Assembly: GCF_000313615.1 (NCBI RefSeq)
Contig: NZ_AMZQ01000001.1
Coordinates: 1 to 64,000, forward strand
Source of the DNA: Campylobacter showae CSUNSWCD
GTDB taxonomy: Bacteria; Campylobacterota; Campylobacteria; Campylobacterales; Campylobacteraceae
DNA: 64,000 bases
Direction: 5' to 3'
Shown: positions 74-47,753 of the stretch, piece by piece
How positions within the stretch are numbered: the first letter of the stretch is position 1
Layout: the number at the start of each line of letters is the position of its first letter
Made by a program: the position numbers and the translations under genes
Notes under the pieces: model-generated
What the model was told of the DNA's origin: nothing
Database searches by the model: none
The model's input: the letters and a program-made list of their open reading frames with translations, nothing else

Positions 74-574
74 ATGTGTATCATAAACTATGAGAAGTTT
101 TCATTCCCCCTAGTGATAGTTTGTACAAGGGAGGCTATGAAGGATATGCAGACATTTGGCAGATCGGTTTTAGTCTGCGAGTTTTACAAGAATTTTAGCG
201 GGCAAACGATAGTCGCAAGCCGCACGCTAAATACTAAATTTATAGGCAAAAAAGAGCAGATGGACGATACTCTTTTTAACGATGAATTTAGAGTTTTTAC
301 AGACGACAAGGTCGAAGCAAGATATCTTTTGACGCCTGCGTTTATGAAGTGCTTGAGAGAGTTCAAGATAAAATTTGCAGGAGAGATGGGAGTGAGCGTG
401 GCGTTTATGGATGATAAATTTTATCTATTTTTAAACGGAGCGAAAAACAAATTTGAGACGACGCTCTTTTCGCCGCCGCCGAGCCTTTATGACGTAAAGC
501 AGATAAAAAAGGAAATTTCAGAACTTTTATCTATCATAGACGAGTTAAATTTACGCCTTGAGATTTTTAAGTGA
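74..574 (+). pseudogene. DUF3137-like C-terminal fragment (5'-truncated)
   Basis: The 166-residue reading frame resembles the C-terminal half of DUF3137 membrane-associated proteins, seen in KNFSGQT near residue 39 and a stretch reading TDDKVEARYLLTPAFM around residues 76-91. Members I know are about 300 residues or more and begin with membrane helices; neither is present here. The bases before the frame (1-73) hold an intergenic-type repeat word (AACCCGCACC) and no continuing frame, so the upstream half looks lost. An alternative start at the ATG at 137, preceded by AGGGAGG, would give 146 residues. A functional short protein is possible but less likely. The biological role of the family is unknown to me. 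Confidence 0.6.
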
Positions 575-681
575 TGGCAAATTTGACGGCTGCGGTTTTT
601 GCAGGCAAAGTTAAGGCGAGAATTTATGAATCAGCTAATATGCTAGTCGCTAGCCTTAATCCGTTTTTAGGCTTTTGATGA

Positions 682-687
682 TATAAT
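682..687 (+). promoter_or_regulatory. Candidate -10 box (TATAAT) for the oxidoreductase gene
   Basis: A perfect TATAAT sits about 120 bases before the ATG at 808. Campylobacter sigma-70 promoters depend mainly on the -10 box, so this is a reasonable promoter. No start-site data are available. Confidence 0.45.
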
Positions 688-807
688 TTCTCAAAAATAA
701 GACTTTTGCGGTTTGAGGCGAGGTTTAAAAATCAGCAAATTTAATCAGCTTAAATTTAACGCCCCCAAAGCGCAAATACTCTAAAATTTATCAAAAAAGG
801 AGCCAAA

Positions 808-1356
808 ATGAAAACGCTAGTAGTTTTATCCCATCCAAATTTCGCCGCCTCTCGCCTAAACAAGGCGCTGGCAAACGCCGCTAAAAGCGCAGGCGCCCAG
901 GTTCGCCACCTAGAGGGACTATATGGCACCGACGCCCTAAAAATCGATGTCGCGGCTGAACAAGAGGCGTTTTTGCGCACGGATCGCATCGTGTTTTTGT
1001 TTCCGATGATGGGCTTTAACGTGCCCTCCATGCTAAAGGCATACATCGACTACGTGCTTAGCCGCGGCTTTGCCTACGGCGATGGCGCGAAGATCGCGGG
1101 CAAACAGCTACAAATCGCCGTTAGCGCGGGTGGCGGACTGGGCGAATACTCCAAGCACGGCGCGATCAAATTTACCCTAAACGAGATTTTGCTGCCGCTT
1201 CAGTGCTGCGCGAACTTTTGCGAGCTCGTTTACGGACGGATTTTCGCTAGCTGCGGCGTGGAGCCGGGCGTGCCAGATAGCGCGATAGAGGCGCATGCAG
1301 CGAGATTTACGAAGCTCTTAAACGACGAGCTTGAAGAGCACGAATATCAAATTTAA
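808..1356 (+). CDS. NAD(P)H-dependent flavin oxidoreductase (flavodoxin-like fold, MdaB/KefF type)
   Basis: This 182-residue cytoplasmic protein begins with a flavodoxin-like strand and phosphate-binding region (MKTLVVLSHPNFAASRLNKA) and carries the mid-protein FLFPMMGFNVPSMLKAYID segment that in this family packs against FMN or FAD (more commonly FPLYWYSVPALLK.W.D). A GGG loop at about residues 110-112 matches the second flavin loop. Length fits the 170-200 residues of quinone reductases and KefF-like proteins. A good ribosome site (AAAAAAGGAG) precedes the ATG, and a hairpin terminator follows at 1399. It stands alone. Likely role is two-electron reduction of quinones or other electrophiles; the substrate cannot be read from sequence. 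Confidence 0.8.
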   Translation: MKTLVVLSHPNFAASRLNKALANAAKSAGAQVRHLEGLYGTDALKIDVAAEQEAFLRTDRIVFLFPMMGFNVPSMLKAYIDYVLSRGFAYGDGAKIAGKQLQIAVSAGGGLGEYSKHGAIKFTLNEILLPLQCCANFCELVYGRIFASCGVEPGVPDSAIEAHAARFTKLLNDELEEHEYQI

Positions 1357-1398
1357 CGAAGCAAAATAGCGCGCTTGCGAGCTTAAATTTGCTTTTCT

Positions 1399-1432
1399 AG
1401 CGGCGATTTTCTGCGCGGAGTCGCCGCTTTTT
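1399..1432 (+). terminator. Rho-independent terminator after the oxidoreductase gene
   Basis: AGCGGCGA at 1399-1406 pairs with TCGCCGCT at 1421-1428, and a short T run follows. It lies 43 bases after the stop codon at 1356. Confidence 0.75.
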
Positions 1433-1533
1433 CAAATTTAACCGCGTAAAATGCCCGCTTTGGTTTGAGCGAGCGGTTCGGCGTGTTTTTGACGCTTTTG
1501 CGTTGTAGTTTTTTGGGCGAGTTTTGCTAGGCG

Positions 1534-1558
1534 GCCCAGACCCGCACCTTTTTGGTGC
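1534..1558 (+). repeat. Dispersed intergenic word GCCCAGACCCGCACC with attached hairpin
   Basis: GCCCAGACCCGCACC at 1534-1548 belongs to a word found in several other gaps of this window (around 10, 22610, 24890, 25440, 47740 and 49940). Here the end of the word forms a small hairpin GCACC-TTTTT-GGTGC at 1544-1558. The rest of the 1433-1745 gap holds no convincing gene. Confidence 0.55.
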
Positions 1559-1745
1559 GTTGCTTTGGGGCGGATGTATTTTACGGCGCGGATTGGTCAA
1601 ATTTGCGGTATCGCAGAAAAGCTCGCGACCGTATCTTTTGCCGCGAGCGGTGATTTTGGTTTTATGAAATTTTTACGCATTGGGATTTGGCTTTAAATTT
1701 TGGTCGTTTTAAAACGGCGCAAATCCTTATAAATTCGGAGTTTTT

Positions 1746-2444
1746 ATGATTTTTGGCAAGATTGATTATCTAAATTTGCTTCCTTTTCACGTATTTTTAA
1801 AGCGCTCGCGCCTAAGCTCGCAGGATAAAAAAATCATCGAATTTAAAAAGGGCGTGCCAAGCAAACTAAACCGTGATCTGCGCTGCCGAAGGATCGACGC
1901 TGCCGTGGTCTCAAGCATCGAAAGCCGCAAAAAACGCTATAAAAAAGTGAGTCTGGGTATCGTCGCAAAAGGCGACGTCAAAAGCGTACTCGTGCGAAAG
2001 GGCACCGCCGCGCGTCCCGACCCCGCGTCTGCGAGCTCAAACGCGCTAGCCGAAGTGCTGGGGCTTGAGGGCGAGGTGCTCATCGGCGACCGCGCGCTAA
2101 AGGCGTATCTGCGGGAGGGCGAGGAGACGTTTTTTGATTTGGGGCGGGCGTGGCGCGAGCGGACGGGCTTGCCGTTTGTTTTCGGGCGATTTTCCTGCGT
2201 GAAGGGGCGCGGCGCGTATGAGCGGCTGGCGCGCGAGTTTTTGCGAGCAAATATCAAAATCCCAAACTACATCCTCGCCAAATACGCCCAAACCAGAGGC
2301 ATCAGCGCGGACGATATCAAATGGTATCTCAAATTTATCAGCTACGAAATCGGCGCGAAAGAGCAAAAGGCGTTGCGGATATTTTTCAAAGAAGTGCGAA
2401 AAAACGGGAGCACGGCGAAGCTTTTGGCGCGAGACGAGAAGTAA
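1746..2444 (+). CDS. mqnA: Chorismate dehydratase MqnA (futalosine menaquinone pathway)
   Basis: The 232-residue product opens with FGKIDYLNLLPFHVFLK, the substrate-site signature of the MqnA/MqnD periplasmic-binding-protein-like fold (K/R-I-x-Y-x-N-x-x-P), and carries VVSSIES near residue 58 and PFVFGRF near 142, both typical of MqnA. MqnA converts chorismate to 3-enolpyruvyl-benzoate, the first step of the futalosine route to menaquinone that Campylobacter uses in place of the o-succinylbenzoate route. It is shorter than actinobacterial MqnA (about 270-280) but near the size usual in Campylobacterota. CGGAG lies just upstream of the ATG. The menaquinone made would be the electron acceptor pool for the formate dehydrogenase encoded nearby. 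Confidence 0.85.
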   Translation: MIFGKIDYLNLLPFHVFLKRSRLSSQDKKIIEFKKGVPSKLNRDLRCRRIDAAVVSSIESRKKRYKKVSLGIVAKGDVKSVLVRKGTAARPDPASASSNALAEVLGLEGEVLIGDRALKAYLREGEETFFDLGRAWRERTGLPFVFGRFSCVKGRGAYERLAREFLRANIKIPNYILAKYAQTRGISADDIKWYLKFISYEIGAKEQKALRIFFKEVRKNGSTAKLLARDEK

Positions 2445-3325
2445 GCTCAAATTTACTCTAACGCGCCGCTTTTTAAATTTGCCTTTTTATCTCGGGCGAC
2501 TTTCGCAGTCGCCTCAAATGCCGTAGTTTAAAGCCTAACCGCCGCATAGCGCTAAATTTTAATCACTTTAAGCGACGCATTTTTTAGAAGTTAACAATAT
2601 TTGGTTAAATTTGAAATTTGGCAGGCAAATTTACGGTCGTTCTCGTCAAATTTACCCGCTTAAATTTAAATTTACGCCCGCCGCGAGCTCAAATTGTATT
2701 CGGCCGAATTTACCTTTTTACCTTCTCTATATGCCGAGCATTTGCCGCTTGTCTGCCTGTCCTTTTTTATAGCAAATATGGAATTGACTTTAGTTTGCTC
2801 GTTTGACCACGTTATAAACAATCTTGCGCTCTAAAAAGTTCTGTCTGGCTCGGCGCGATGTTTTTCTAATTTTCTTAGCCACAACTACGTAGGAATGTTT
2901 TTGTTTTGATGTTAGCTCCTAAATTTATCAAGGCATTAAAAGCGTTTATGCCATTTCTCAAGTTGTTTCGTCAAAAGCCTCAATCTCTTCTTTCGTTACG
3001 TATTTGCTTAGCTCTTAGCCTGGGATTATTTTGGTATCGGCGGTAACGGTGAAGTGAGTGGGCGAGACGGCTTTTTGTAAATAAAATTTACGAAATAGTA
3101 GCCAAAGGGCGGTTAAATTTGAGTGAAATTGGATGGGAAATTTGGAAAATGCGGGAGTAAATTTAGGCGGGTTAAAGAGGCTAAAAAATTGCGCCGAAAA
3201 CGGACGGGTTTTTCTAGCTAAATTTAAAGCGCAAATTTGACGAGAAAACGGCCGCTCGGGCGACTCGGGCAAGTTAAATTTGCCTGCCGGCACGAGCCTA
3301 GCAAGCAAATTTAAGCGCGCAAGCC
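2445..3325. other. 881-base gap, probably decayed sequence; no intact gene
   Basis: No frame here looks like an intact protein. On the minus strand between about 3014 and 2790, one frame reads as protein-like blocks separated by stops: ELSKYVTKEEIEAFDETT, then after several stops KQKHSYVVVAKKIRKTSRRA continuing through NFLERKIVYNVVKRAN. This looks like the eroded remains of a small basic protein, but I cannot name it. At 3274-3314 TTAAATTTGC pairs with GCAAATTTAA around a GC-rich centre, close to the end of the minus-strand chaperone gene, and may help end its transcript. Confidence 0.35.
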
Positions 3326-4045
3326 TCAGTCGTCGAACTCTTGCGAGATGACGGGCGAGAACTCCTCCCAGCGGAGTTTAGTTTTGGCCGTAGGCATCTT
3401 GCTTTGAAACGGTTCTTTTTTCATCGAGGCTACCGCAGCGCTGTCTCCGACCGGCGCAGGAGGAGCCTCCACGCCTAGCACCGCGCGCTCAAGCTCGATA
3501 AAATCGCGCAAGATAGCTGCGTAAGAGGCGAAAAAGTCCGCGTTTTTGTGAGAGGATAAAAATTTGATAAATTCGTCGATAAATTTATTCGTAACGTCCG
3601 TAAATAGCTTGCTGCTGATATCTGCAGCGCCGGCTGCTTCATCGCGCAAAAAAGTCGCCGTCGCTAAAAATATAAATCCGACGTAGTCCTCGCTGTCTTT
3701 GCAGACATTCGCGTCTCTGCGGTACGGGCTTAGCTTCAGGCACTCGATCACTCGCAGCCTAGCCGCGCCGTCGTCGCGCCCGTCCTCGTAAAACGAGGCG
3801 TTTAGCGGGATGTTGGAGTAAGAAAAGTCAAAAAGCACGTCGTTTTGCTCTCTAGCGAATTTCTCAAAGTCGAATTTTGCCAAATTTGCAAACGCGGCCT
3901 CGCTTTGGGGCGTAACTGGACTAGTCGCTAGGTAGGCTAGCTGCTCGCGCCAGCGGTTAAATTTGGTATCTTGCACGTGAAAAAACAGCGGATAGGCCAA
4001 AAACTCGTAAAAATACGCGCGCGCTTTAGTTAAGTTATTATCCAT
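3326..4045 (-). CDS. TorD/DmsD-family chaperone, probably for formate dehydrogenase
   Basis: This 239-residue, all-helical cytoplasmic protein matches the TorD-like chaperones that bind Tat signal peptides and guard molybdoenzyme apoproteins: an N-terminal YFYEFLAYPLFF helix and a central block with NIPLNASFYEDGRD followed by RRDANVCKDSEDYVGFIF, corresponding to the family's P-x-x-S-x-Y and E-D-H/Y-x-x elements. Its start overlaps the end of the polyferredoxin gene by 8 bases, so the two are translationally coupled. The C-terminal 45 residues are low-complexity and end WEEFSPVISQEFDD. In C. jejuni a homologue (Cj1514c) lies next to fdhA; here the gene is on the other side of selAB but still within 7 kb of fdhA, the only Tat-dependent molybdoenzyme in the window. 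Confidence 0.8.
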   Translation of the reverse strand: MDNNLTKARAYFYEFLAYPLFFHVQDTKFNRWREQLAYLATSPVTPQSEAAFANLAKFDFEKFAREQNDVLFDFSYSNIPLNASFYEDGRDDGAARLRVIECLKLSPYRRDANVCKDSEDYVGFIFLATATFLRDEAAGAADISSKLFTDVTNKFIDEFIKFLSSHKNADFFASYAAILRDFIELERAVLGVEAPPAPVGDSAAVASMKKEPFQSKMPTAKTKLRWEEFSPVISQEFDD

Positions 4046-5708
4046 TTAAAACCTCTTCTCTCATTTGATCCATTTGCGCTTTTATCATTACTTTGGCTTT
4101 GCAGTCCGAGCAGCAGTACAGCGCTTTTATCTTGGCTTTATCGCCGTTAAATCTAGGCTCCATGATCGAGGCGATCTTCTCGACGGCCTTTTTGGTCGCA
4201 AACTCCTTGCCGCACTCGATACAGGCGAAAAGCTCGTCTCTGGCTAGCTCGCTAAACGTAAAGAAACTAGGCTCCAGATCGATCTTGCCCGGGCGTAAAA
4301 ATATCGTGTCTTTTTCCGCGCAGCTAAGCTCGCAGTATCCGCACGCGGTGCAGACGCTCGGGTTAAAGAGGATGGAGTTTGTTTTCTTGTCCGCAACTAG
4401 TGCAGCGACGTTGCAGGCTCCCACGCAGCTTAGGCACAGCGTGCAGGTGTCGCGGTTTATTTCGACGCGGCCGTATCTGATGAGCTCGGTGGTGCTAACC
4501 GAGCCTAAATTTTGCCCGTCCACAAGCCACTCTAGGCGCTTGGCGAAAATTTCGCGCTTAGGCAGTGCGTACTCGGTGACGGAGTGCTGCGAGCCCTCGA
4601 TAAATTTAGCCTGAGATAGGGCGCTTTTTAGCTTGTCTTCGTTTGGCGCGACGAGGACGGCTTTTTCGTTAAATTTGAGCTCGTAAATTTGGTTTAAAAT
4701 ATCCACCGCGTCTTTGGTGCCTTTGCCGATATTTTTCTCGTAGATCACGACCTGCGCGCCGCTTTCTTGAAGCAATGTAAGCAGATGCGTCTCGCTCAAA
4801 AATCTCTCGCCGCTAATGGCAAAAGGCAGCACGTTTGCGGGTAAATTTACGCTTAGGTTTTCTAAATTTGCCTTTGCGGGTACGACGAGCGCGATCCGGC
4901 CGCGGTAGAGTTTGGCTATCTGGGCAAATGAATTTCTTGGCATATCGGAGTAATCAAGCGCGCCGCTAGGGCAGACGCTCACGCAGCCGCCGCAGTTTAT
5001 GCAGTCGATGTGGGAGAAAACTAGGTGCTTGGTCTCGTCCTCTTTTAGGATCGCGACCGTAGGGCAGGCCTCGACGCATCTGCCGCAGATCTCGTGTCTG
5101 CGCTCGTGGTACTGGCAGATCGTGGAGTCGTAGTGGACGTGGCTTTTAAATTTAAATTTCGGGCTTTGCGCGTCTAGCAGCGCGGCGATCTCGTCATCGC
5201 TTTTGCCCGCGATCTCGTAGCAGCCGCTTTGTTTTAGCATGTATTCGCGTGCGTTTTCTACGAGGAAAAAGTCGCAGTCCACCTCAAACTCGCCGTCCGG
5301 GCGCAGCACTAGCACGCTTAGCTCGCCTGCTGCTCCGTAGATAAATTTGATCTCAAAATGCGTTAGCTCGATGGTTTTAAAGCCTTTTTCCTTTAGCAAA
5401 TTCGCCAAATTTTCGCGGCCGCCGTTGCTAACGATAACGACGTTTTTGCCGACGGGTTTTTCGTAGTCGATGTCGCGCGCTAGGTCAAAGGCGCTGGCTC
5501 TTGCCTCATAAAGCAAAAGCGTGTTTTTAGCCTTATCCAGCACCGAGTCTGCGGTGTTTTTTAGATAAAAATTTATCTCAGGCGCTACGACGCTTGCCTT
5601 TAGTTTGGGCGAATTTGAGACGAGATAGTTGCCTTCGCCGTTTATCTCGATCTGCTCGTTTAGTATCAAATTCTCGTCAAAATCGTTGTAAAAACCAAAT
5701 TCTTTCAT
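4038..5708 (-). CDS. Multi-cluster 4Fe-4S ferredoxin (Cj1377c type)
   Basis: The 556-residue protein has a unique N-terminal half of about 200 residues and then four ferredoxin-type cysteine motifs: CGRCVEACP near 208, CINCGGCVSVCP near 236, CTLCLSCVGAC near 422 and CTACGYCELSC near 452. The C terminus adds CIEC and CCSDC pairs that look like a zinc or rubredoxin-like site. No signal peptide or membrane segment is visible, so it should be cytoplasmic. It is divergent from selA, with about 160 bases between starts, the arrangement seen in C. jejuni (Cj1377c-selA). Likely role is electron transfer, plausibly linked to formate dehydrogenase or its maturation because it is coupled to a TorD-type chaperone; partner and potential are unknown. 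Confidence 0.85.
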   Translation of the reverse strand: MKEFGFYNDFDENLILNEQIEINGEGNYLVSNSPKLKASVVAPEINFYLKNTADSVLDKAKNTLLLYEARASAFDLARDIDYEKPVGKNVVIVSNGGRENLANLLKEKGFKTIELTHFEIKFIYGAAGELSVLVLRPDGEFEVDCDFFLVENAREYMLKQSGCYEIAGKSDDEIAALLDAQSPKFKFKSHVHYDSTICQYHERRHEICGRCVEACPTVAILKEDETKHLVFSHIDCINCGGCVSVCPSGALDYSDMPRNSFAQIAKLYRGRIALVVPAKANLENLSVNLPANVLPFAISGERFLSETHLLTLLQESGAQVVIYEKNIGKGTKDAVDILNQIYELKFNEKAVLVAPNEDKLKSALSQAKFIEGSQHSVTEYALPKREIFAKRLEWLVDGQNLGSVSTTELIRYGRVEINRDTCTLCLSCVGACNVAALVADKKTNSILFNPSVCTACGYCELSCAEKDTIFLRPGKIDLEPSFFTFSELARDELFACIECGKEFATKKAVEKIASIMEPRFNGDKAKIKALYCCSDCKAKVMIKAQMDQMREEVLNG

Positions 5709-5869: not shown

Positions 5870-7195
5870 TTGAACGAACTACGAAAACTCCCGCAGATAG
5901 ATAAATTTATAAAAAATGAGCGATTTTTCGGGCTTGATATTAGCTTGCTGACCAAGGTCGCTAGGGCCGAGCTAGAGAGCCTGCGCGCGCAAATTTTAGG
6001 CGGACAAAACTGCCCAGAGTCAGGCGAGATCGTCCAAAATACGCTCGCAAGGTACGAAAAGGCGTCAAATTTGAGTCTGCGAGGCCTAATAAACGCAACC
6101 GGCGTCATCATCCATACAAACCTCGGCCGTAGCGCGATCGATCCTGAAATTTTACGCCGAGCTCAGCCTGTTATCACGGGATACTCAAACCTCGAGTACA
6201 GCGTCGAAAAGGGCGGCCGCTCAAACCGCTACGACTACGTGGGCGGGCTGCTGGCGGAGCTTTTCGGATTTGAGGACGCCGTCATAGTAAACAACAACGC
6301 AAGCGCCGTATTTTTGGTGCTAAATACCTTCTCAAAAGGCGGCGAAGCTATCATCAGCAGAGGCGAGCTAGTCGAGATCGGCGGGAGCTTTCGCGTGCCC
6401 GAAGTTATGGCAAACTCGGGTGCGATCCTGCGCGAAGTGGGCACGACGAATAAAACCAATCTGCGCGACTACGAGGACGCGATAAACGAAAACTCAAAGC
6501 TGATTCTAAAGGTGCATAGGTCAAATTTCGACATCGTGGGCTTCAGCGAGGAAGTAGCGATGCAGGGTCTTAGCGCGCTAGCAAGAGAGCGAAATCTCAT
6601 TGATTATTTTGATCTTGGCGGCGGATTTTACGGTGAGCTGCCATACGGTCTAGAGCGCAACGAGCCTAATCTAAAAAATCTAAAAGACGCCTCGCTCGTT
6701 AGCTTTAGCGGCGACAAGCTCTTTGGCTCCGTGCAGTGCGGCATAATCCTAGGTAAAAAGGGGCTCATCGCAAAGCTAAAGAAAAATCAGCTGCTAAGAA
6801 TGCTGCGCGTGGATAAGGTGATCATCTCAATTTTGGCTGAAAGCGTCAAAGCCTACGCAAACCGCGAATTTGAGCTTATCACGACGGTAAAGCAGCTCTA
6901 TAAAAGCGTGGATGAGCTGGAAAACACGGCAAATTTCATAAACTCACAGCTAAAAACTCCGCTTGAAATCGTGCGCACGACGACCTTCGTAGGCGGCGGC
7001 ACGATGCCAAACAAACGCATACCTAGCCTCGCGCTGGCCGTCAAAGGAAACGCGAACGAAAACGAGGCTAAATTTAGGAAAAATCTCGTGATCGGCCGCA
7101 TCGAGGAGGGCAAATTTTTGCTCGATCTTCGCAGCGTGCTGGACGCGGATGTGCAAAATTTGATAGAAAAAATCAACGAAACGGATGAAAAATGA
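5870..7195 (+). CDS. selA: L-seryl-tRNA(Sec) selenium transferase SelA
   Basis: The 441-residue PLP enzyme converts seryl-tRNA(Sec) to selenocysteinyl-tRNA(Sec) using selenophosphate. Visible features are NATGVIIHTNLGRS near residue 80, VNNNASAVFLVLN near 141 and the PLP-lysine block SFSGDKLFGSVQCGIILGKK near 279, where the lysine of GDKLFG is the Schiff-base residue. Length is close to that of E. coli SelA (463). The start is TTG at 5870 with TAGGAG 6-11 bases upstream; no ATG in frame nearby fits better. selB overlaps by 4 bases (ATGA). It is divergent from the polyferredoxin gene. Its selenium donor would come from SelD at 51953. Confidence 0.96.
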   Translation: MNELRKLPQIDKFIKNERFFGLDISLLTKVARAELESLRAQILGGQNCPESGEIVQNTLARYEKASNLSLRGLINATGVIIHTNLGRSAIDPEILRRAQPVITGYSNLEYSVEKGGRSNRYDYVGGLLAELFGFEDAVIVNNNASAVFLVLNTFSKGGEAIISRGELVEIGGSFRVPEVMANSGAILREVGTTNKTNLRDYEDAINENSKLILKVHRSNFDIVGFSEEVAMQGLSALARERNLIDYFDLGGGFYGELPYGLERNEPNLKNLKDASLVSFSGDKLFGSVQCGIILGKKGLIAKLKKNQLLRMLRVDKVIISILAESVKAYANREFELITTVKQLYKSVDELENTANFINSQLKTPLEIVRTTTFVGGGTMPNKRIPSLALAVKGNANENEAKFRKNLVIGRIEEGKFLLDLRSVLDADVQNLIEKINETDEK

Positions 7196-9012
7196 GCTTA
7201 ATAATAGGAACGGCCGGGCACATTGACCACGGCAAAACGGCGCTGATAAAGGAACTAAACGGCTTTGAGGGCGACAGACTCGAGGAGGAGCAAAAGCGCG
7301 GTATCACGATCGATCTTAGCTTTTCAAATTTGAGCAAAAACGGCGAAAATATCGCTTTTATCGACGTGCCGGGACATGAAAATTTGATCAAAACGATGAT
7401 CAGCGGCGCGTACGGATTTGACGCGTGTCTTTTCGTCGTGGCGGCAAATGACGGACTTATGCCGCAGTCTTTGGAGCATTTGGAAGTTTTAAATATCCTT
7501 GGCGTTCGCTCGCTCATCGTCGCACTAACCAAATGCGACCTAGCTAGCGCGGAGCTAATAGAGCAGCGAAAGAGCGAAATTTACGCCGCCGCGCAAAACT
7601 ACAAAAATCTGCAAATTTTAGAGATTTTCCCGGTTAGCATTAAAGATAGCGCGAGCATTGATGAGCTGCGAAATTATCTTTTCACGCTAAAGGCGGCCAA
7701 GCGCGAGCAAGATGGCGTTTTTAGGTATTACATCGACCGCGTTTTTAGCCTAAAAGGTATCGGAAACGTAGTCACGGGCACCGTGATAGAGGGCAGCGTA
7801 ACGAAAAACGAGAAGCTGTTTAACTATGACGCGGGCAAAGAGGTGCAAGTGCGAAGCGTGCAGAGTCACGATAATTTCGTCGACCGCGCGGGAGTTAGCA
7901 GCCGCGTGGCGCTAAATTTGACGGGAATCGAGCTAAACGATCTAAAAAAAGGCCAACTGCTCAGTAAAAAGGGCTTTTTTAGAGGATTTCGCGAGATAGA
8001 CGCGATCGTTTTCGCCCGAGAGCTAACGCATGGGCAGAGCGTGACGTTTTGCGTCGGCGCAAAGGCCGCACCCGCAAAAGCGCTGATCCTCAGCGAAAAA
8101 GACAGCGGGATATTTGCGACATTTAAATTTGAAAGGGATATGTTTTTAAAATTTGACGAGCCGTTCGTGCTCATCGCAAACGGCCGCGTCATAGGCGGCG
8201 GCAGAGTGCTAAACGCCGTGAGCGAGCCGATGAAAAAATCAAGCAAAATTTCGTTTTTAAGCTCGCTGCTCAAAAAAGATTTCGTAAGTGCCTTTGCGAT
8301 GCTAAAAGATACGCATAAAAACGGCTTTGGCATCATATCGGCCTATCAGCGTTTCGGGCTAAATCACGAGGAAGCCGTTGCTATCGCAAAGCAAGCACCA
8401 AATGTATTCGTCGATGAAAAGGCGCTAAATATCTATGATCTAAGCGCGGTCGATAGGATAAAAAGCGCGGTAAAATTTATGATAGAAAAAAACGAATTTG
8501 CGGTGTTTTCGGCTACGAGCATCAGCCTAAAGCTCTCGTGGGCTAGCGAAAATATCGCTCAAAAGGCGCTTGACGAGCTAGAAAGCGCGGGCATGATCGC
8601 TAAAAACGACGGCGTCTACACCAAAACCGGCGTGGATATGAGCAAGCTAAAAATCAGGCTCGAGGAGAAAATTTACGAAATTTTGCAAAGCGGAAATTTG
8701 GCTCCCTTGGCGCCCTATAACATCTACGACGAGCTTGAGATAGACCGCGTTAGCGGCGATAATGCGCTAAAAAAGCTAACTGGCATCGGACGCGTGGTGA
8801 GGCTCGCGCATAATCTTTTCGTAACGTCAAAAGCCCTAAACGAGGCGCTTGCGAAGCTAAAAGCCATCATCGCCGCGCAAGGATCCGTAAACGTAACGAA
8901 CGCGAAAGAGGCGCTAAATTTGAGTAGAAAATACGTAATCGCCTATCTAGAGCAGCTTGATCTGGATCCAAATATAGTAAAAAACGGCACGGACAGAGTT
9001 TTAAAAGCGTGA
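7192..9012 (+). CDS. selB: Selenocysteine-specific elongation factor SelB
   Basis: The 606-residue GTPase carries Sec-tRNA to the ribosome at UGA codons followed by a SECIS hairpin. The G-domain motifs are plain: GTAGHIDHGKTAL (P-loop), DVPGHE, and TKCD for guanine recognition; the switch I region reads EEEQKRGITIDLSF. EF-Tu-like barrels follow to about residue 340, then winged-helix repeats that bind the SECIS loop. Length matches bacterial SelB (about 610). Its start overlaps selA by 4 bases, a conserved selAB pair. Clients in this window are fdhA and selD. The tRNA(Sec) gene selC is not in the window. Confidence 0.96.
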   Translation: MSLIIGTAGHIDHGKTALIKELNGFEGDRLEEEQKRGITIDLSFSNLSKNGENIAFIDVPGHENLIKTMISGAYGFDACLFVVAANDGLMPQSLEHLEVLNILGVRSLIVALTKCDLASAELIEQRKSEIYAAAQNYKNLQILEIFPVSIKDSASIDELRNYLFTLKAAKREQDGVFRYYIDRVFSLKGIGNVVTGTVIEGSVTKNEKLFNYDAGKEVQVRSVQSHDNFVDRAGVSSRVALNLTGIELNDLKKGQLLSKKGFFRGFREIDAIVFARELTHGQSVTFCVGAKAAPAKALILSEKDSGIFATFKFERDMFLKFDEPFVLIANGRVIGGGRVLNAVSEPMKKSSKISFLSSLLKKDFVSAFAMLKDTHKNGFGIISAYQRFGLNHEEAVAIAKQAPNVFVDEKALNIYDLSAVDRIKSAVKFMIEKNEFAVFSATSISLKLSWASENIAQKALDELESAGMIAKNDGVYTKTGVDMSKLKIRLEEKIYEILQSGNLAPLAPYNIYDELEIDRVSGDNALKKLTGIGRVVRLAHNLFVTSKALNEALAKLKAIIAAQGSVNVTNAKEALNLSRKYVIAYLEQLDLDPNIVKNGTDRVLKA

Positions 9013-21837: not shown

Positions 21838-22431
21838 ATGAAACTAAAAATTTTCTCTATTTTGCTATTTGCGATTTTTTTCGTAGGTTGCGGCGAACCG
21901 CGCACGCCCGAGCTTTACGCTAGAAGCACGATGCCGATTTTTATCACTAACGGCGACGTGAAAAAAGCCCCTCGTAGCGTCTACGTTTACTTTAAAAACT
22001 CCTCAGGCTACGCAAACACGCTAGAAAATACCGTGCGAAACAAGTTACTGCAAAACGGCTTTACTCAAAGCATGGATCAAAAGAGCGCAGATATCGTAAT
22101 AATGGGCGATTTTGCGAGCTTACAGCGCCTTGAGCGACGCGAACGCCCGCGAGTTTATATGAATATGGGATATGGCTTTGGCAGCTACGGGCGCACGCGA
22201 AGCATGGGCTTTGGCATGCTTTTTGGCGACCCGTTTGACGATGATTTTTACGATAGGACGGATTATTATCTTTATAGAGCCTATATCAGCGTGATGATCC
22301 GCGCAAACGGCAGCGAACAAAGGACAAATCTCGAGATCGAAAGCGGGCAAAATCTTTATTCGCCAAGTTATATAATCCCATACATAGAAGAAAAGGCAGC
22401 GACGCAGATACTTAGTTTCTTTTATCCTTAG
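21838..22431 (+). CDS. TraT-like outer-membrane lipoprotein
   Basis: The 197-residue protein has a signal peptide and lipobox (FFVGCGE), then a pattern recalling TraT complement-resistance lipoproteins: STMPIFI, RSVYVYFKNSSGYANTLENT and KLLQNGFTQSMDQKSADIVI, which align with the TraT segments for FVDIRNTSDK and AKGYQVVTSPDKA. The middle is glycine and arginine rich (GYGFGSYGRTRSMGFGMLFG). TraT forms outer-membrane oligomers that block conjugation and complement. Chromosomal relatives in Campylobacter have no proven function. It has its own GGAG ribosome site and is followed at once by a dispersed hairpin repeat. Confidence 0.6.
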   Translation: MKLKIFSILLFAIFFVGCGEPRTPELYARSTMPIFITNGDVKKAPRSVYVYFKNSSGYANTLENTVRNKLLQNGFTQSMDQKSADIVIMGDFASLQRLERRERPRVYMNMGYGFGSYGRTRSMGFGMLFGDPFDDDFYDRTDYYLYRAYISVMIRANGSEQRTNLEIESGQNLYSPSYIIPYIEEKAATQILSFFYP

Positions 22432-22432
22432 C

Positions 22433-22633
22433 GGCTTGTCTTTTTGCCCTATACTTCGTTACTTTTAAATTTGGCTCGGTCATTACCTACATGGTAACTC
22501 CCGTCGCCAAATTTAAAAGTGCCTCGTCTAGAACAAAAATACTTCGCCTTATCGTTTTACGTTCAAATTTGAAGACAAATTTGCAAATTTCGGCTCCAAA
22601 TTTTACCCATCGAGACCGCACCTTGAAAATGCT
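22433..22633 (+). repeat. Variable-stem hairpin element, copy A1
   Basis: Two bases after the TraT-like stop comes a fixed left flank (GGCTTGTCTTTTT ... TATACTTCGTT), then a hairpin 22461-22520 with arms ACTTTTAAATTTGGC and GCCAAATTTAAAAGT and an inner stem TTACC/GGTAA, then a fixed right flank GCCTCGTCTA. The flanks recur in inverted orientation at 30681-30787, although the stems differ. A tail containing ATACTTCGCCTTAT and ACCGCACCTTGAAAATGC recurs at 24830-24912. The remaining gap to 22854 is AT-rich and holds the promoter of the next gene. Confidence 0.7.
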
Positions 22634-29753: not shown

Positions 29754-30470
29754 GTGAAAGAGGAATTTGAAATAGCCCGTAAAAGAGTCACAATCTACCG
29801 CATTAAAGCGCAAAATTTAACGCTAAAGGCGGATGATGACGGTTTGCAAAACGCAGGTGCACCGATAGTATTTTATAGCGCGTTTGCGAACGAAGCAGAC
29901 GATATCGCGCGAGCTTTAAGCGAGCTTGATGGCGTAAATCTCACACTCGCGGCAGTGGGCGGACTGGAGTGGAGCTCCGAAATGACGCCATGGCCGATGC
30001 CTGCTCTTTTTAAGAAGGAGCCGCCTTTTGAGGGCGGGGCGGATGAGTATTTGCAAACGCTAACGCAGCAGATCGCGCCTGCCGTGCTGGCAAAAACGGG
30101 CGATGCGGCGTGGCTCGGGATCTCCGGGTACTCGCTAGGCGGGCTTTTCGCGCTTTATTCGCTTTATAAAACGCCTATGTTTACGCGCGTCGCTAGCGTT
30201 TCGGGCTCGCTTTGGTATAAGGATTTTCGCGAGTTTGCGCTGGGCTCGCATCTTGCGGGCAAGCCGGAGCGTGCGTATCTCTCGATCGGCGACCGCGAGA
30301 GCATGAGCAAAAACGAATACCTAAAAACGGCGCTAGACGCCACACGCGATATTGCCGCGCACTTTGAGAGTTCGGATGTCAGAAGCAAATTTGAGCTAAA
30401 TCCTGGCAATCACTATGCAGACGAGATAGGGCGCACGGTAAAGGCTCTAGTGTGGTTAGTCGACGGTTAA
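29754..30470 (+). CDS. Alpha/beta-hydrolase esterase (Fes/IroE-like)
   Basis: The 238-residue protein starts at GTG 29754 behind AAGGGA. The nucleophile elbow is GYSLGG near residue 126, preceded by WLGIS, and a likely acid-histidine end is at SIGDRES near 178 and NPGNHYADE near 219. This resembles the esterase D / Fes / IroE group that cleaves siderophores or small esters. No signal peptide is visible, so it acts in the cytoplasm. The substrate is not evident; a siderophore esterase would suit the iron locus upstream, but that is only a possibility. Confidence 0.7.
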   Translation: MKEEFEIARKRVTIYRIKAQNLTLKADDDGLQNAGAPIVFYSAFANEADDIARALSELDGVNLTLAAVGGLEWSSEMTPWPMPALFKKEPPFEGGADEYLQTLTQQIAPAVLAKTGDAAWLGISGYSLGGLFALYSLYKTPMFTRVASVSGSLWYKDFREFALGSHLAGKPERAYLSIGDRESMSKNEYLKTALDATRDIAAHFESSDVRSKFELNPGNHYADEIGRTVKALVWLVDG

Positions 30471-30680
30471 ATTTAACTCTAAATATGCCGCAAAATCGCC
30501 GTCAAATTTGAAAATTTAGCCGCAACAGAAGTTAAGATGGCGGGCTAAATTTGCTAACGGACGGCGTTAAATTTAAATTAGAAATTTGAACACACTATAA
30601 TAAGGTAAAGTATCGCTAGATGGATTGTGGTCACAACTGCTAACAAAAGCAACGAAAATTATAAAAATTTAGGTGCAGAA

Positions 30681-30787
30681 TTTTTCGCTTAGACGAGGCG
30701 AAATTTGATTTTTAAGCGGAGCGTATATGCGATACGTGAGCGTTAAAAATCAAATTTCAACGAAGTATAAGTAGAAAAAGGCAAGCC
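30681..30787 (-). repeat. Variable-stem hairpin element, copy A2 (inverted)
   Basis: Read on the minus strand, the flanks are GGCTTGCCTTTTT ... TATACTTCGTT on the left and GCCTCGTCTAAGCGAAAAAT on the right, the same as copy A1. The hairpin between them has different arms: GAAATTTGATTTTTAA at 30700-30715 pairs with TTAAAAATCAAATTTC at 30743-30758, with an inner stem CGTAT/ATACG. It lies between convergent genes. The rest of the 30471-30802 gap has nothing else I can identify. Confidence 0.7.
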
Positions 30788-30802: not shown

Positions 30803-32014
30803 TTAAACTTCGTATCTCTCTCCTGGCTTCATCTCTATCATCTCCCACGGCAACCCCTGCTTATTTAGCTCATCCATGAAAGGTTTTGCGTCAAAATTTT
30901 CCATATTAAAGACGCCTTTGCCGCTCCAGATGCCTTTTGTGACCATTAGCGAGCCTATCATTGCTGGCACGCCTGTGGTGTAGCTAACAGCCTGCGCGCC
31001 TGTCTCAGCGTAGCAAGCCTCGTGGTCGCAGACGTTGTAGATATAGACTTGGCGCTCTTTGCCATCTTTTAGACCGCGGATAACGCAGCCGATGTTTGTT
31101 TTGCCTTTTGTGCGCGGGCCAAGGCTCGCAGGGTCAGGCAGAAGCGTCTTTAAAAACTGGATCGGCACTATTTTCATGCCGTTATGCTCGACCTCGTCTA
31201 TGCGTAGCATTCCCACGTTTTCTAGGCACTTCATGTGGGTTAGGTAGCTTTGTCCAAAAGTCATGAAAAAGCGAATTCTCTTTAGCCCTTTGATGTTTTT
31301 TACTAAGCTTTCAAGCTCCTCGTGGTAGAGCAGATAGCTATCCTTGACGCCTACTTTTGGGTAGTCCCACTTAAACATGATCTGCATAGGCTTTGTCTCG
31401 ATCCATTTTCCAGCCTCCCAGTAGCGGCCATTTGCGCTAACTTCTCGTAAATTTATCTCTGGGTTAAAATTTGTTGCAAACGGATATCCGTGATCGCCTG
31501 CGTTGCAGTCAAGGATGTCGATCTCGTGGATCTCGTCAAATAAATTTTGCTGTGCATAGGCGCAAAATACGTTTGTCACGCCTGGGTCAAAGCCAGAGCC
31601 AAGAAGCGCCATGGTACCAGCGTTTTTAAAGTCACTATCCTTCGCCCACTGAAGCTTATACTCAAATTTAGCAGTGTCTGGGTGCTCGTAGTTTGCGGTG
31701 TCGATGTAAGGTATGCCAGCCTTTACGCAAGCGTCCATGAGCGTTAGGTCTTGATATGGCAGCGCGACGTTTAGAAGTAAATCAGCCTTTGTTTGCTTGA
31801 TAAGCTCTACCACAGCTGCTGTGTCGTCAGCGTCGATCTGCGCGGTGTTTATCTGCACGCCAAGGCGATCTTTTATAAATTTAGCGATCGCATCGCACTT
31901 GCTTTTTGTGCGGCTTGCTAGGGTGATATTTGTAAAAACGTCCGAGTTCATCGCACATTTTACGGTTGCGACTTGGCTAACGCCACCTGCTCCGATGATT
32001 AAGATATTTGACAT
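30803..32014 (-). CDS. Carboxynorspermidine dehydrogenase (saccharopine dehydrogenase family)
   Basis: The 403-residue protein has an N-terminal Rossmann motif (ILIIGAGGVSQVATVKCAM) and the saccharopine-dehydrogenase core: PYIDTANYEHPD near residue 115, ALLGSGFDPGVTNVF near 142, and DCNAGDHGYPF near 179. In Campylobacter the homologue Cj0172c makes carboxyspermidine from putrescine and aspartate semialdehyde in the alternative spermidine pathway; its partner, carboxynorspermidine decarboxylase NspC, is at 48689 in this same window. Cytoplasmic. The ATG is preceded by TTAAGGAG. The gene stands alone between convergent or divergent neighbours. Confidence 0.9.
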   Translation of the reverse strand: MSNILIIGAGGVSQVATVKCAMNSDVFTNITLASRTKSKCDAIAKFIKDRLGVQINTAQIDADDTAAVVELIKQTKADLLLNVALPYQDLTLMDACVKAGIPYIDTANYEHPDTAKFEYKLQWAKDSDFKNAGTMALLGSGFDPGVTNVFCAYAQQNLFDEIHEIDILDCNAGDHGYPFATNFNPEINLREVSANGRYWEAGKWIETKPMQIMFKWDYPKVGVKDSYLLYHEELESLVKNIKGLKRIRFFMTFGQSYLTHMKCLENVGMLRIDEVEHNGMKIVPIQFLKTLLPDPASLGPRTKGKTNIGCVIRGLKDGKERQVYIYNVCDHEACYAETGAQAVSYTTGVPAMIGSLMVTKGIWSGKGVFNMENFDAKPFMDELNKQGLPWEMIEMKPGERYEV

Positions 32015-36036: not shown

Positions 36037-36266
36037 AAATTTTCCTTTTTAAAGGAGTAATTTTACCCGAATTTTGATAATACGTAAATTAAAGCCGAAT
36101 TTGATAAAATGTGAGCGGTAAATTTAAAAAATCGGCAAAGTTATCTTGCGATGAATTTAAATGTTGCGACGAAATTTTCGACCGAAGATAGAACATATAG
36201 TTCATCGAGGGAGGAAATTTCTAGCTCATTTAAAGGCGCGCAAGAGAAGCCGAAAAAGGAAAAATT

Positions 36267-39732: not shown

Positions 39733-39809
39733 GGTTATACTCCTTAAATTTGGCGCTGGAGGAATTTACCCTGCGCCCCTAAGTTGCAAAACTAAATTTA
39801 ACCTCAAAT

Positions 39810-40028
39810 TTAAACCATTTTGAGCACTTCGACTATCTCGCCCTTTGCGATAAATTCGGTTTCTTTGGGGATGATTAAAAGCGCGGCACCCCCTGTTAGA
39901 TTGTTTACAATCGCCGAGCTGCCCAGCTTTTTGCCGTCTAAATTTACGTAAATTTTGCCGCCCAGATTGACTAAATTTACCGCCGTAAACTCCAAAAACG
40001 GCGAGCGTTTTTTGTAATTTAATATCAA
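39810..40028 (-). pseudogene. Duplicated 3' end of moeA
   Basis: This 72-codon frame repeats the last 70 or so residues of MoeA at 41002, from YKKRSPFLEFTAVNLVN to EIVEVLKMV, with a few changes (LGGK for RDGK, KKLG for KKMG). At DNA level 39813-40019 and the end of moeA (about 41004-41213) look roughly 90 percent identical. There is no proper start or ribosome site. It marks an imperfect direct repeat flanking the unknown gene at 40034-40977, as would arise when a segment was inserted next to moeA by recombination through homologous DNA. Confidence 0.85.
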
Positions 40029-40977: not shown

Positions 40978-41001
40978 TATCAACCTTTAAATTACTTAAA
41001 T

Positions 41002-42198
41002 TTAAACCATTTTTAGCACTTCGACTATCTCGCCCTTTGCGATAAATTCGGTTTCTTTTGGGATGATTAAAAGCGCGGCGCCTCCCGTGAGGTTATTTAC
41101 GATCGCCGAGCTACCCATCTTTTTGCCGTCTAAATTTACGTAAATTTTACCGTCGCGATTTACTAAATTTACCGCCGTAAACTCCAAAAACGGCGAGCGC
41201 TTTTTGTAGTCCTCGTCCATGATCGCCGTGATTTTAGGCTCACTAGCACCAAACCACGCGTTTAGCAGCACTCGCACGTAGAGCACGCACATCACTATCG
41301 CCGAGTACGGAAAGCCCGGCAGCGCAAAAATGTATTTTTCGCCCGCTTTTGCTACTTTGATGTGGCGGCCCGGCTTGATCGCGGCGCTGTCGATGATAAT
41401 GTCGAAATTTTCGCCCAGCGCGCCCTTGACGAAGTCGTAGTCGCCCATGCTGATGCCGCCGGTGGTGACGAGCACGTCGGCTGATTTTAGCGCGCGGACG
41501 ATGGCGTCTTTTACGAGCTCGGCGCGGTCGCGTACTATCTCGCACAGCACGGGTTCGCCGCCCATTTTGCGCACCATGGCCGCGATGCCTACGTGGTTTG
41601 AGCTGTGGATCTGCGCGGCGTTTTCTAGCGGTTCGCCGAGGTCTTTTATCTCGCTTCCAGTCGCCAGTACCGCAACGCGCGGCCGCACGAATACGCTAAC
41701 GTTAAAGATCCCAAGCTCGGCTAGCAGCGCAGTCTCGGCGTAGCCTATCGTCGCGCCTTTTTTGATTAGGATTTCGCCTTTTTTGTAGCTTTCGCCCACT
41801 TCGCGTACGGCAAAGCCCTTTGCGACGGATTTTTTGATCACGACCTTGCTACCTACGACCTCGACGTTTTCGACCGGGATTAGCGTGTCGGTACCTTCGC
41901 TCATCAGCGAGCCGGTGAAGGTTTTGACGCATTTTACGCCCTCGACTTTTAGCCCTTTGTCGCTGCCTGCGGGCAGATCGGTGATGAGCTCAAGCTCGCT
42001 CAGCCCCTCTTGCCACGCAAACGCGTAGCCGTCCATAGCGGAGACGGGACGCTCCGGGTAGTTATCCTGCGCCGCGATATCTACGGCGATACGGCGATCA
42101 AGTGCTTGCGTGAGCGTGACCTTTTCCACGCGGTCCCACGGAGCCAGCGTAGAGCGTAAAATTTCAAGAGAGGCCTCATAACTCATAAATTCTTTCAT
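41002..42198 (-). CDS. moeA: Molybdopterin molybdenumtransferase MoeA
   Basis: The 398-residue enzyme inserts molybdate into adenylylated molybdopterin. Typical blocks are VSAMDGYAFAW near residue 48, TGSLMSEGTDTLIPVENV near 95, VLATGSEIKDLG near 185, DVLVTTGGISMGDYDFVKGAL near 244 and PGFPYSAIVMCVLY near 300. Length is normal (about 400). It supplies cofactor for FdhA. The gene is divergent from the TelA-like gene; the gap between them contains hairpin element B1. Its last 70 codons have a second, diverged copy at 39810. Confidence 0.95.
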   Translation of the reverse strand: MKEFMSYEASLEILRSTLAPWDRVEKVTLTQALDRRIAVDIAAQDNYPERPVSAMDGYAFAWQEGLSELELITDLPAGSDKGLKVEGVKCVKTFTGSLMSEGTDTLIPVENVEVVGSKVVIKKSVAKGFAVREVGESYKKGEILIKKGATIGYAETALLAELGIFNVSVFVRPRVAVLATGSEIKDLGEPLENAAQIHSSNHVGIAAMVRKMGGEPVLCEIVRDRAELVKDAIVRALKSADVLVTTGGISMGDYDFVKGALGENFDIIIDSAAIKPGRHIKVAKAGEKYIFALPGFPYSAIVMCVLYVRVLLNAWFGASEPKITAIMDEDYKKRSPFLEFTAVNLVNRDGKIYVNLDGKKMGSSAIVNNLTGGAALLIIPKETEFIAKGEIVEVLKMV

Positions 42199-42210: not shown

Positions 42211-42340
42211 TGATTCCCCGGCTCGGCTGGATTTTAAATAGTTTTCGGCTAGGATACTCGGGTCACGGACGACTGGTCCGCTCCCGTCGTATCCGCCGCA
42301 AACTATTTAAACTACACACAATCCGTCTGGAATATTTTTC
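42211..42340 (+). repeat. Variable-stem hairpin element, copy B1
   Basis: TGATTCCCC begins the element. Arms TTTAAATAGTTTTCGGC (42233-42249) and GCCGCAAACTATTTAAA (42295-42311) pair with one mismatch; GGATAC/GTATCC and CGGAC-GACTG-GTCCG form inner stems. The right flank ATCCGTCTGGAATATTT recurs in copy B2 (47673-47689). The internal words CTCGGGTCA and CTCCCGTCG around the inner stem are almost those of copy A1. Confidence 0.7.
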
Positions 42341-46450: not shown

Positions 46451-47518
46451 ATGAATTTTTCAAATTCAAAATGGTTTATCGTTTCAGGTGCAGCGCTCGG
46501 CGCTCTAGGCGCATTGCTCGTGTATTTTGGCAACCCCGGCAACATGGGCGTTTGCGCGGCTTGCTTTTTGCGCGATACGGCGGGAGCGCTGGGCTTTCAC
46601 CGCGCAGGAGTCGTGCAGTACGTGCGCCCCGAGATCATCGGGCTCATTTTGGGCGGCTTTTTAGCCAGCGTGCTTTGGACGAAGGAGTTTAGCGCGACCA
46701 CGGGCTCTTCGCCTTTCGTGCGCTTTTTTCTCGGATTTTTCGCGATGATCGGTTGTCTCGTGTTTTTGGGCTGCCCGTGGAGAGCGTTTTTGCGTCTCGG
46801 CGGCGGCGATATGACGGCGATTGCGGGAGTCGTCGGTATTTTTGCAGGCGTGTGCGCGGGCGTATTTTTCAAAAAGCTCGGCTACGGCCTCACGCACGAG
46901 ACTAAAGCTCAGGCCGCGATAGGCGTTTTGCCGACGGTTATGGGTATTTTGCTGCTTGCGGCGCTGGCTCTTGGGCTAAAGCTTGGCGAAAACGGCGCGC
47001 TTTTTACCTCCGCAAAAGGCCCTGGCTCCATGCATGCTCCGATCCTGATCTCGCTTGGATTTAGCATCGTCGTGGGCGCGCTAATGCACAAAAGCAAATT
47101 TTGTAGCGTAGGGGCGTTTAGTAGGCTTTTAAAAGGGGATTTTTCGATGTTTACGGGCATTGTCAGTATCGTGGTTTTTGCCAGCATCGTAAATTTAGCG
47201 CTTGGGCAGTATAAATTCGGCTTTGAAGGCCAGCCTATCGCGCACAACGACGTGCTTTGGAACTTCCTTAGCATGACGCTAGCAGGGCTTTGCTTTAGCC
47301 TGAGCGAAGGCTGCCCGGGCAAGCATCTCGTGCAAATGGGCACGGGAAATCTAAGCTCGGTAATCTTTGTCATCGGTATGGCGGCTGGCGCGGCCGTAGC
47401 GCATAACTTCTTGCTCGCTAGCTCTCCTAGCGCCATAACGGCGGCGGCTCCGTGGGCGGTGGCGATGGGGTTTATTTTTGCGGCTTATGTGGGATTTTTT
47501 CACAAAAAAGCAGCTTGA
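46451..47518 (+). CDS. yedE: YedE/FdhT-family selenium-related membrane transporter
   Basis: The 355-residue protein has about nine to ten membrane helices and two sulfur-transport-type half repeats. Key features are CAACFLRDTAGALG near residue 35, FLGCPWRAFLRLGGGD near 102, HKSKFCSVGAFSRLLKGD near 215 and LSEGCPGKHLVQMGTGN near 283, matching YedE proteins with conserved cysteines in pore-lining positions. In C. jejuni the homologue FdhT, with FdhU, is needed for selenium-dependent formate dehydrogenase. Here the fdhU/yedF homologue is 4 kb away at 51357, with moa, nspC and fdhC genes between them. Predicted role: uptake of a reduced selenium species. Confidence 0.9.
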   Translation: MNFSNSKWFIVSGAALGALGALLVYFGNPGNMGVCAACFLRDTAGALGFHRAGVVQYVRPEIIGLILGGFLASVLWTKEFSATTGSSPFVRFFLGFFAMIGCLVFLGCPWRAFLRLGGGDMTAIAGVVGIFAGVCAGVFFKKLGYGLTHETKAQAAIGVLPTVMGILLLAALALGLKLGENGALFTSAKGPGSMHAPILISLGFSIVVGALMHKSKFCSVGAFSRLLKGDFSMFTGIVSIVVFASIVNLALGQYKFGFEGQPIAHNDVLWNFLSMTLAGLCFSLSEGCPGKHLVQMGTGNLSSVIFVIGMAAGAAVAHNFLLASSPSAITAAAPWAVAMGFIFAAYVGFFHKKAA

Positions 47519-47753
47519 TTCCCCATAATTTTGCTTCGACTTCGTCTCGCAACCGCTAATCGCTTCGCTGCGGACGAACGGATTTCAAGCTTTAAAATTT
47601 TAAACCCGTTTTGGTTACGTATTTCATATACGCGCCCTAACGGGTTAAAATTTTAAAGTTAAACTACGCCTATTGCGTCTGGAATATTTGTCGCATATCT
47701 TGCTAAATTTATAAATTTGACATTTTCGCGGCGCGGGTCTGGGCGAGTAAAGA
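47519..47753 (+). repeat. Variable-stem hairpin element, copy B2, with inverted CCCAGACCCGC word
   Basis: Directly after the yedE stop comes TGATTCCCC as in copy B1. Arms CTTTAAAATTTTAAACCCGTT (47590-47610; one bulge) and AACGGGTTAAAATTTTAAAG (47639-47658) pair over about 20 bases; the inner stem is CGTAT/ATACG. The right flank has GCGTCTGGAATATTT as in B1. At 47720-47752 the minus strand reads TTTACTCGCCCAGACCCGCG, the dispersed word. Confidence 0.7.

What the first reader, a model, noticed from the sequence alone, without database searches (positions are those of the whole stretch)
22433..22633. Dispersed intergenic element with fixed flanks and a stem that differs between copies yet always pairs
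Seen directly: copies A1 (22433-22530) and A2 (30681-30787, inverted) share flanks GGCTTG-x-CTTTTT ... TATACTTCGTT and GCCTCGTCTA ... AAAAAT, but the 15-16 bp stems between them are unrelated in order of bases while both remain self-complementary. Copies B1 (42211-42340) and B2 (47519-47690) share other flanks (TGATTCCCC and CGTCTGGAATATTT) and again have different stems. Inference: selection keeps the fold rather than the bases, as in a functional RNA or a DNA cruciform target, or the stem is rewritten by an unknown process. I know no described Campylobacter element with this behaviour.
Basis: partly seen in the sequence, partly recalled or inferred. Interest (0 to 1): 0.75.

Follow-up and report, generated by a model that had tools for sequence, protein, structure and literature searches.

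The report
ERIC-like hairpin repeats in Campylobacter
Scattered DNA hairpins in a Campylobacter genome, whose stems differ from copy to copy but still pair, look like distant relatives of the small ERIC repeats known from gut bacteria, and similar hairpins turn up in many other groups of bacteria.

Summary
A model built from 9 copies finds 21 in the genome, 16 with A flanks and 5 with B flanks. Copies with the exact A core occur under titles from many phyla. A 31-copy alignment covaries strongly: 303 double-change cells against 103 +/- 9 shuffled.

The Campylobacter-only model picks out the two ERIC sites in 100 kb of E. coli K-12 as its only good hits. One family (genome G092) joins this core to ERIC's own ends, length and TA target. 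I read the elements as ERIC-like, MITE-like hairpins. The Campylobacter copies lack ERIC's ends, do not align to ERIC by sequence alone, and the full-length model hits ERIC only weakly: relatives, not ERIC itself.

Stems differ through compensatory change and swapping of whole stem modules; no rewriting process is needed. The moving enzyme and any host effect are unknown; Y1 transposase was not found in 48 genus genomes. A 2024 review places ERIC in Enterobacteriaceae and Vibrionaceae.

The parts
22433..22548 (-). It starts 2 bases after the stop codon (22429-22431) of ORF 21838-22431.
   Evidence: R2 hit 22438-22542 minus, 96.9 bits; R1 hit 22472-22507
22441..22451 (.). A1 outer stem, first arm (partner 22529-22539)
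22452..22460 (.). A1 core loop, first side TACTTCGTT (other side GCCTCGTC at 22521-22528)
22461..22475 (.). A1 free-sequence inner stem, first arm (partner 22506-22520), pairs 15 of 15
22472..22507 (+).
30672..30787 (+). Copy A2, whole hairpin, between convergent ORFs 29754-30470 (+) and 30803-32014 (-)
   Evidence: R2 hit 30678-30781 plus, 91.7 bits; R1 hit 30712-30747 minus, 24.6 bits
42211..42340 (-). Copy B1: same apical motif (R1 42255-42290), other core and flanks; R2 does not report it
47518..47690 (-). Copy B2: same apical motif (R1 47607-47642), right after ORF 46451-47518; R2 hit 47581-47667, 27.6 bits

Best explanation
A and B are non-autonomous, MITE-like hairpin repeats of an ERIC-related superfamily. 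Each copy is one long imperfect hairpin of roughly 115-175 bp. From the ends inward an A copy has short paired ends, an internal loop, an outer stem of about 11 bp, a conserved core loop (GACGAGGC opposite AACGAAGTA), a free-sequence inner stem, a GAG/TGA loop that can form tandem G.A pairs, and a 5-bp apical stem. Shown: the fold, the covariation, the spread, the recurrence and swapping of stem types, and target duplications in two related families of other bacteria. An effect on mRNA ends, as reported for Yersinia ERIC, is plausible and untested here.
For: 21 copies with a clean score gap; 42 of 48 genus genomes, 0-38 copies. Covariation and own-partner pairing. Same junction, different stem type at A1 in G000, G035, G039 and another hairpin in G038, and at two more junctions. 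All four combinations of two outer spacers and two inner stems (L156, L157, L175, L180). R1, from Campylobacter copies alone, scores 22.3 bits on E. coli ERIC and in 100 kb of K-12 its only good hits are the two ERIC sites there (E 8.5e-4 each, next 3.2). Family G092: R2 60.8-66.1 bits, ends TATACTC/GAGTATA, mostly 126-127 bp, TA on both sides in 10 of 10 copies, aligned to ERIC at z 7.8. Family G228: 4-bp identical flanks in 5 of 9 copies, reached in 19 of 10000 shuffles.
Against: Campylobacter A copies do not have ERIC's ends; A1 and A2 align to ERIC no better than shuffles (z -0.2 and 1.1) and to G092 only at 2.1 and 1.8. R2 hits ERIC weakly with filters off (10.1-16.9 bits, E 0.0036-0.25) and with default filters not at all in 100 kb, where a non-ERIC stretch scores 15.1 bits. 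The E. coli test rests on two ERIC sites only. ERIC aligned to the reverse complement of G092 also gives z 3.3, as palindromes do. No transposase, transcript or precise empty site was found in Campylobacter. The strand signal is clear only in the outer stem; in the inner stem it is absent or reversed.
Confidence: 0.7

Rival explanations
1. A fixed, functional structured RNA (cis-element or small RNA) that simply occurs in many copies, not a mobile repeat.
For: Conserved loops, free stems and covariation are the mark of structured RNA; G.U is favoured over A.C on one strand in the outer stem, 29 to 2; orthologous copies with paired changes stay in place in L070, L081, L092.
Against: Copy number runs from 0 to 38 within one genus; near-identical copies at many sites with target duplications in G228 and G092; no constant neighbour gene; no Rfam match.
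Confidence: 0.12
2. The hairpin acts as a transcription terminator or mRNA 3'-end stabiliser and is kept and exchanged for that.
For: Copies often start right after a stop codon and are co-directional with the upstream gene (42 against 11 anti-directional among 102 copies, the rest convergent, divergent, in ORFs or without neighbour; 20 against 11 of 50). At the A2 site G038 and G040 carry an ordinary terminator-like hairpin instead (by eye).
Against: A terminator does not need conserved internal loops shared by many phyla; copies lie within rRNA operons, one inside 23S; many copies have no T-run after the stem (by eye).
Confidence: 0.12
3. Convergence: the Campylobacter element and ERIC arrived independently at the same apical loop.
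For: The invariant letters shared with ERIC are few; full-length similarity to E. coli ERIC is weak; the ends differ.
Against: Same order of parts from end to tip in ERIC, G092 and A; G092 joins the R2 core to ERIC's exact ends; R1 singles out ERIC in K-12.
Confidence: 0.15
4. Stems are rewritten by fold-back templated repair (one arm copied from the other), so that both arms change together without selection.
For: Arms stay complementary while sequences differ; small extra hairpins are inserted in some copies.
Against: Mismatches of the conserved internal loops are kept and not corrected; stems recur as shared types at many loci and reassort as blocks.
Confidence: 0.05

Closest known systems
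ERIC / IRU / RU-1 repeats (enterobacteria, Vibrionaceae)
   Same: Long imperfect palindrome of about 127 bp, intergenic, no gene; central GGAG-5 bp-loop-5 bp-TGA motif; order of end repeat, internal loop, outer stem, core loop, inner stem, apical motif; family G092 even has the same ends.
   Different: Campylobacter copies have other ends, another core sequence and no alignable sequence; they occur outside the groups named in the 2024 review (PMC10969869, passages seen).
REP / REPIN elements with RAYT transposase
   Same: Dispersed intergenic palindromes.
   Different: No Y1 transposase found in 48 genus genomes; no constant stem sequence.
RUP, Correia/NEMIS, RPE, YPAL and other bacterial MITE-like repeats
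   Same: Small repeats that fold into long stem-loops (PMC2229807, passages seen).
   Different: Not compared by sequence here; the comparison is from that review and recall.
23S rRNA intervening sequences
   Same: One copy (Legionella impletisoli, L107) lies inside a 23S rRNA gene.
   Different: The other copies seen are elsewhere. The IVS protein family PF05635 was not found in 48 genomes, but that search had no working positive control.

Membership tests
ERIC | Central conserved inverted repeat (ERIC-PCR primer site) | tested here: met
   R1 built from Campylobacter copies hits ERIC centres at 22.3 bits and only those in 100 kb of K-12; two ERIC sites in all
ERIC | Length near 127 bp and one long imperfect palindrome | tested here: met
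   A1 116 bp from GGC to GCC, G092 copies mostly 126-127 bp, E. coli 127 bp; B2 is longer, about 173 bp
ERIC | Ends TATACTC/GAGTATA with TA target | tested here: not met
   Not met by Campylobacter A or B copies; met by G092 family, TA on both sides in 10 of 10 copies
ERIC | Full-length similarity to E. coli ERIC | tested here: inconclusive
   R2 weak with filters off, missed with default filters; plain alignment z -0.2 and 1.1 for A1, A2 and 7.8 for G092
ERIC | Intergenic, multi-copy | tested here: met
   21 copies, 19 of them outside naively called ORFs
REP/RAYT | Y1 transposase in the genome | tested here: not met
   PF01797: 0 of 48 genus genomes, control genomes positive in 5 of 14
Known RNA family (Rfam 15) | Match at or above gathering score | tested here: not met
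   No match in the window; in 10 loci no family at the elements except a sub-threshold long-hairpin microRNA model in L086
MITE (general) | Terminal inverted repeats, target duplication, no transposase gene, many copies | tested here: inconclusive
   Met in families G092 and G228; for Campylobacter only copy number and lack of a gene are shown
ERIC | Effect on stability of upstream transcripts | not testable with these tools
   Reported for Yersinia in PMC2229807 and PMC10969869 (passages seen)

The most novel reading that the evidence does not exclude
ERIC is one local branch of a bacteria-wide superfamily of structured mobile hairpins. The conserved fold (core loop plus tandem G.A apical loop) is a module carried across phyla inside MITEs with different ends and target sites (TA for G092 and ERIC, 4 bp for G228), so probably moved by different transposases; it is kept for what the fold does, not for what a transposase binds.
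Probability: 0.45. Interest if true: 0.78.

Novelty: new variant of a known kind. Interest (0 to 1): 0.6.

Why it matters
ERIC repeats were described in 1990-91 and underlie ERIC-PCR typing, but a 2024 review still places them in Enterobacteriaceae and Vibrionaceae (PMC10969869, passages seen) and their moving enzyme is unproven (PMC2229807, passages seen). A wide set of relatives with strong covariation shows which letters matter and hints at which strand, offers families with clean ends and target duplications in which to look for the enzyme, and makes the old question of what the ERIC fold is for directly testable.

Tried and rejected
REP/RAYT: rejected, no Y1 transposase match in 48 genomes. 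23S IVS protein: no match in 48, but no control rang. Known Rfam RNA: none at the window copies. A shared neighbouring gene: ORFs of 80 aa or more in loci L061-L155 clustered by blastp gave groups from at most 9 loci; I did not annotate them and took none as a partner. Phage-borne element: 2 stretches, both of one viral contig, match the exact pattern. Literature: the two core words give 2 and 43 papers; the 2 and the 20 listed of the 43 are unrelated by title; 'ERIC-like' phrases give 3 papers, ERIC with 'covariance model' 0, Campylobacter concisus/showae with repeats 1, unrelated by title; other searches were made; listings only, open-licence papers only. An autonomous copy with the G092 ends: in 30 loci of about 1.5 kb on each side, most left ends had a right end at 123-137 bp, eight or so had none recognised, and no longer element was seen. 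blastn of a G092 copy against E. coli genomes and plasmids: no match, so the ERIC link is not visible to BLAST. A MAFFT alignment of 56 copies (A3) was set aside for A4: of 107 pattern copies, 53 passed the geometry filter, 37 were non-redundant, and I left out six more by hand before aligning (L062, L066, L086, L094, L096, L133), so copies of unusual geometry are not in the covariation count. L150 is a coding false positive of the pattern and was dropped from later counts.

Full report
CHECK OF THE OBSERVATION. The four copies are at the stated coordinates with the stated flanks. A1 and A2 share TATACTTCGTT and GCCTCGTCTA; their 15-base inner arms are unrelated and pair 15 of 15 in each (L015, L030). 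A pattern of the two core words finds 7 exact copies in the genome and 0 for the reversed control. A covariance model of that motif (R1, 36 positions, 9 copies) finds 21 copies at E 0.0042 or better in the 2.12-Mb genome; the next hit is at 8.9. By their flanks 16 are A and 5 are B.

ANATOMY. The nnn of the outer stem also pairs in part and covaries in the cross-phylum set. The G.A pairing is inferred from sequence. In the 53 copies that pass the geometry filter the arms between core and apical stem are 21-25 bases.

COVARIATION. On 134 distinct copies, arms pair with their own partner far more than with partners shuffled between copies: inner 0.609 against 0.277 (maximum of 1000 shuffles 0.322), outer 0.773 against 0.412 (maximum 0.451). 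On the alignment of 31 copies (A4), 303 cells have both sides changed, against 102.8 +/- 9.1 in shuffles and 87-120 in slid structures; the covariation score is 0.744 against 0.215 shuffled and 0.134-0.217 slid; 81.9% of cells pair against 52.7%. Two measures are less striking: 28 pairs with a double change (85 of 500 shuffles reach it) and 91 further pair types (16 of 500). In the outer stem, G.U on the modelled strand outnumbers A.C by 29 to 2, and 22 to 0 where neighbours pair; letters shuffled give 34.4 to 15.2. The inner stem gives 14 to 23, and 6 to 6 where neighbours pair; the outer count is 59 to 3 and the inner 3 to 9, the other way. So the inference that the fold is selected on the opposite strand rests on the outer stem alone.

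SPREAD. R1 is found in 42 of 48 genomes of the genus, 0 to 38 copies each. The exact-core pattern finds 93 stretches in genome contigs, of which 80 titles were listed; they name Campylobacter concisus and showae, Legionella impletisoli, Vibrio aestuarianus, Kangiella, Phascolarctobacterium, Clostridia, Saprospiraceae, Elusimicrobium, Endomicrobia, Synergistaceae, Planctomycetota, Bdellovibrionales, Deltaproteobacteria and Auribacterota. Most are MAGs, so single cases may be contamination; but 16 of 16 genomes chosen from these loci, four of them isolates by title, carry R2 matches, 1 to 51 each (they were chosen because they have it). In samples drawn evenly from two classes, R2 at E <= 1e-4 occurs in 104 of 369 genomes (class of Legionella; at least two known beforehand to have it) and in 20 of 391 (class of a Clostridia MAG; at least one known beforehand). 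Only 10 candidates were scored per genome under stricter filters, so these are lower bounds.

HOW STEMS DIFFER. At the A1 junction G000, G035 and G039 carry three different inner stems between the same flanks, and G038 carries another kind of hairpin. L041 against L174, and L016 against L167 and L178, show the same. Stem types recur at many loci, and outer and inner modules reassort. In Campylobacter all four combinations of two outer spacers and two inner stems occur (L156, L157, L175, L180); in Phascolarctobacterium likewise, one of the outer modules with a one-base variant (L064, L065, L106, second copy of L098). Two Phascolarctobacterium copies look by eye like chimeras whose halves come from different types and do not pair (L078 at 2750, and the outer arms of L069). 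Copies at what looks like one site in three gammaproteobacterial MAGs (L070, L081, L092) differ by paired changes.

LINK TO ERIC. R1 scores 22.3 bits on four E. coli loci, which are two ERIC sites in four strains. In 100 kb of K-12, chosen to hold the same two sites, these are its only good hits (E 8.5e-4 each, next 3.2). R2, the full-length cross-phylum model, has ERIC as best hit in each of the four loci but weakly (E 0.0036-0.25, filters off); with default filters it misses ERIC in the 100 kb and its one hit there is elsewhere (15.1 bits, E 0.34). A1 and A2 do not align with ERIC by plain alignment (z -0.2, 1.1), nor clearly with G092 (2.1, 1.8), and BLAST finds no E. coli match for a G092 copy. 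A second family (G228, 142-143 bp) has the core but other ends, and 4-bp identical flanks in 5 of 9 copies. I therefore call the window's elements ERIC-like relatives and not ERIC.

MECHANISM. Shown: fold, covariation, dispersal, module swapping, and target duplications in two other families. Inferred: transposition in trans, recombination through conserved loops, selection on the fold of one strand. Not shown: the enzyme, any transcript, any effect. Y1 transposase was not found (0 of 48). PMC10969869 and PMC2229807 (passages seen) report that ERIC at the 3' end of Yersinia genes can destabilise transcripts through an RNase E site, in an orientation-dependent way, and that movement by transposases is not shown. 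Copies in rRNA operons argue against a simple terminator.

NOVELTY. The 2024 review gives ERIC as found in Enterobacteriaceae and Vibrionaceae. My paper searches showed no report of relatives in Campylobacter or other phyla in their listings; they cover open-licence papers only, and the papers of De Gregorio 2005 and Wilson and Sharp 2006 were not held.

Noticed in passing
window 36134-36256: A further dispersed hairpin repeat with many matches in relatives (query 7135-7257). Its tip GATAGAAC-loop-GTTCATC resembles by eye that of Clostridia copies such as L062. R1 and R2 do not report it.
   Followed up: partly
L107 2320-2399: In Legionella impletisoli a copy lies inside the 23S rRNA gene (425-3433), like an intervening sequence.
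   Followed up: no
L166, L046, L050, L052, L054, L086: Copies lie between 23S and 5S rRNA genes in Campylobacter and in one deltaproteobacterial MAG.
   Followed up: no
L074 3964-4045: In Vibrio aestuarianus a copy lies next to a CsrB-family small RNA match (4071-4383).
   Followed up: no
L024, L026, L181, L177: Small extra hairpins (ending in ..GCAAGCAGA) are inserted in the core region of some copies.
   Followed up: no
L310 from 1501: A G092 copy looks collapsed to its two ends, with the inner palindrome missing.
   Followed up: no
window 39803-40016 and 40995-41208: A 214-nt direct repeat, 92% identical.
   Followed up: no
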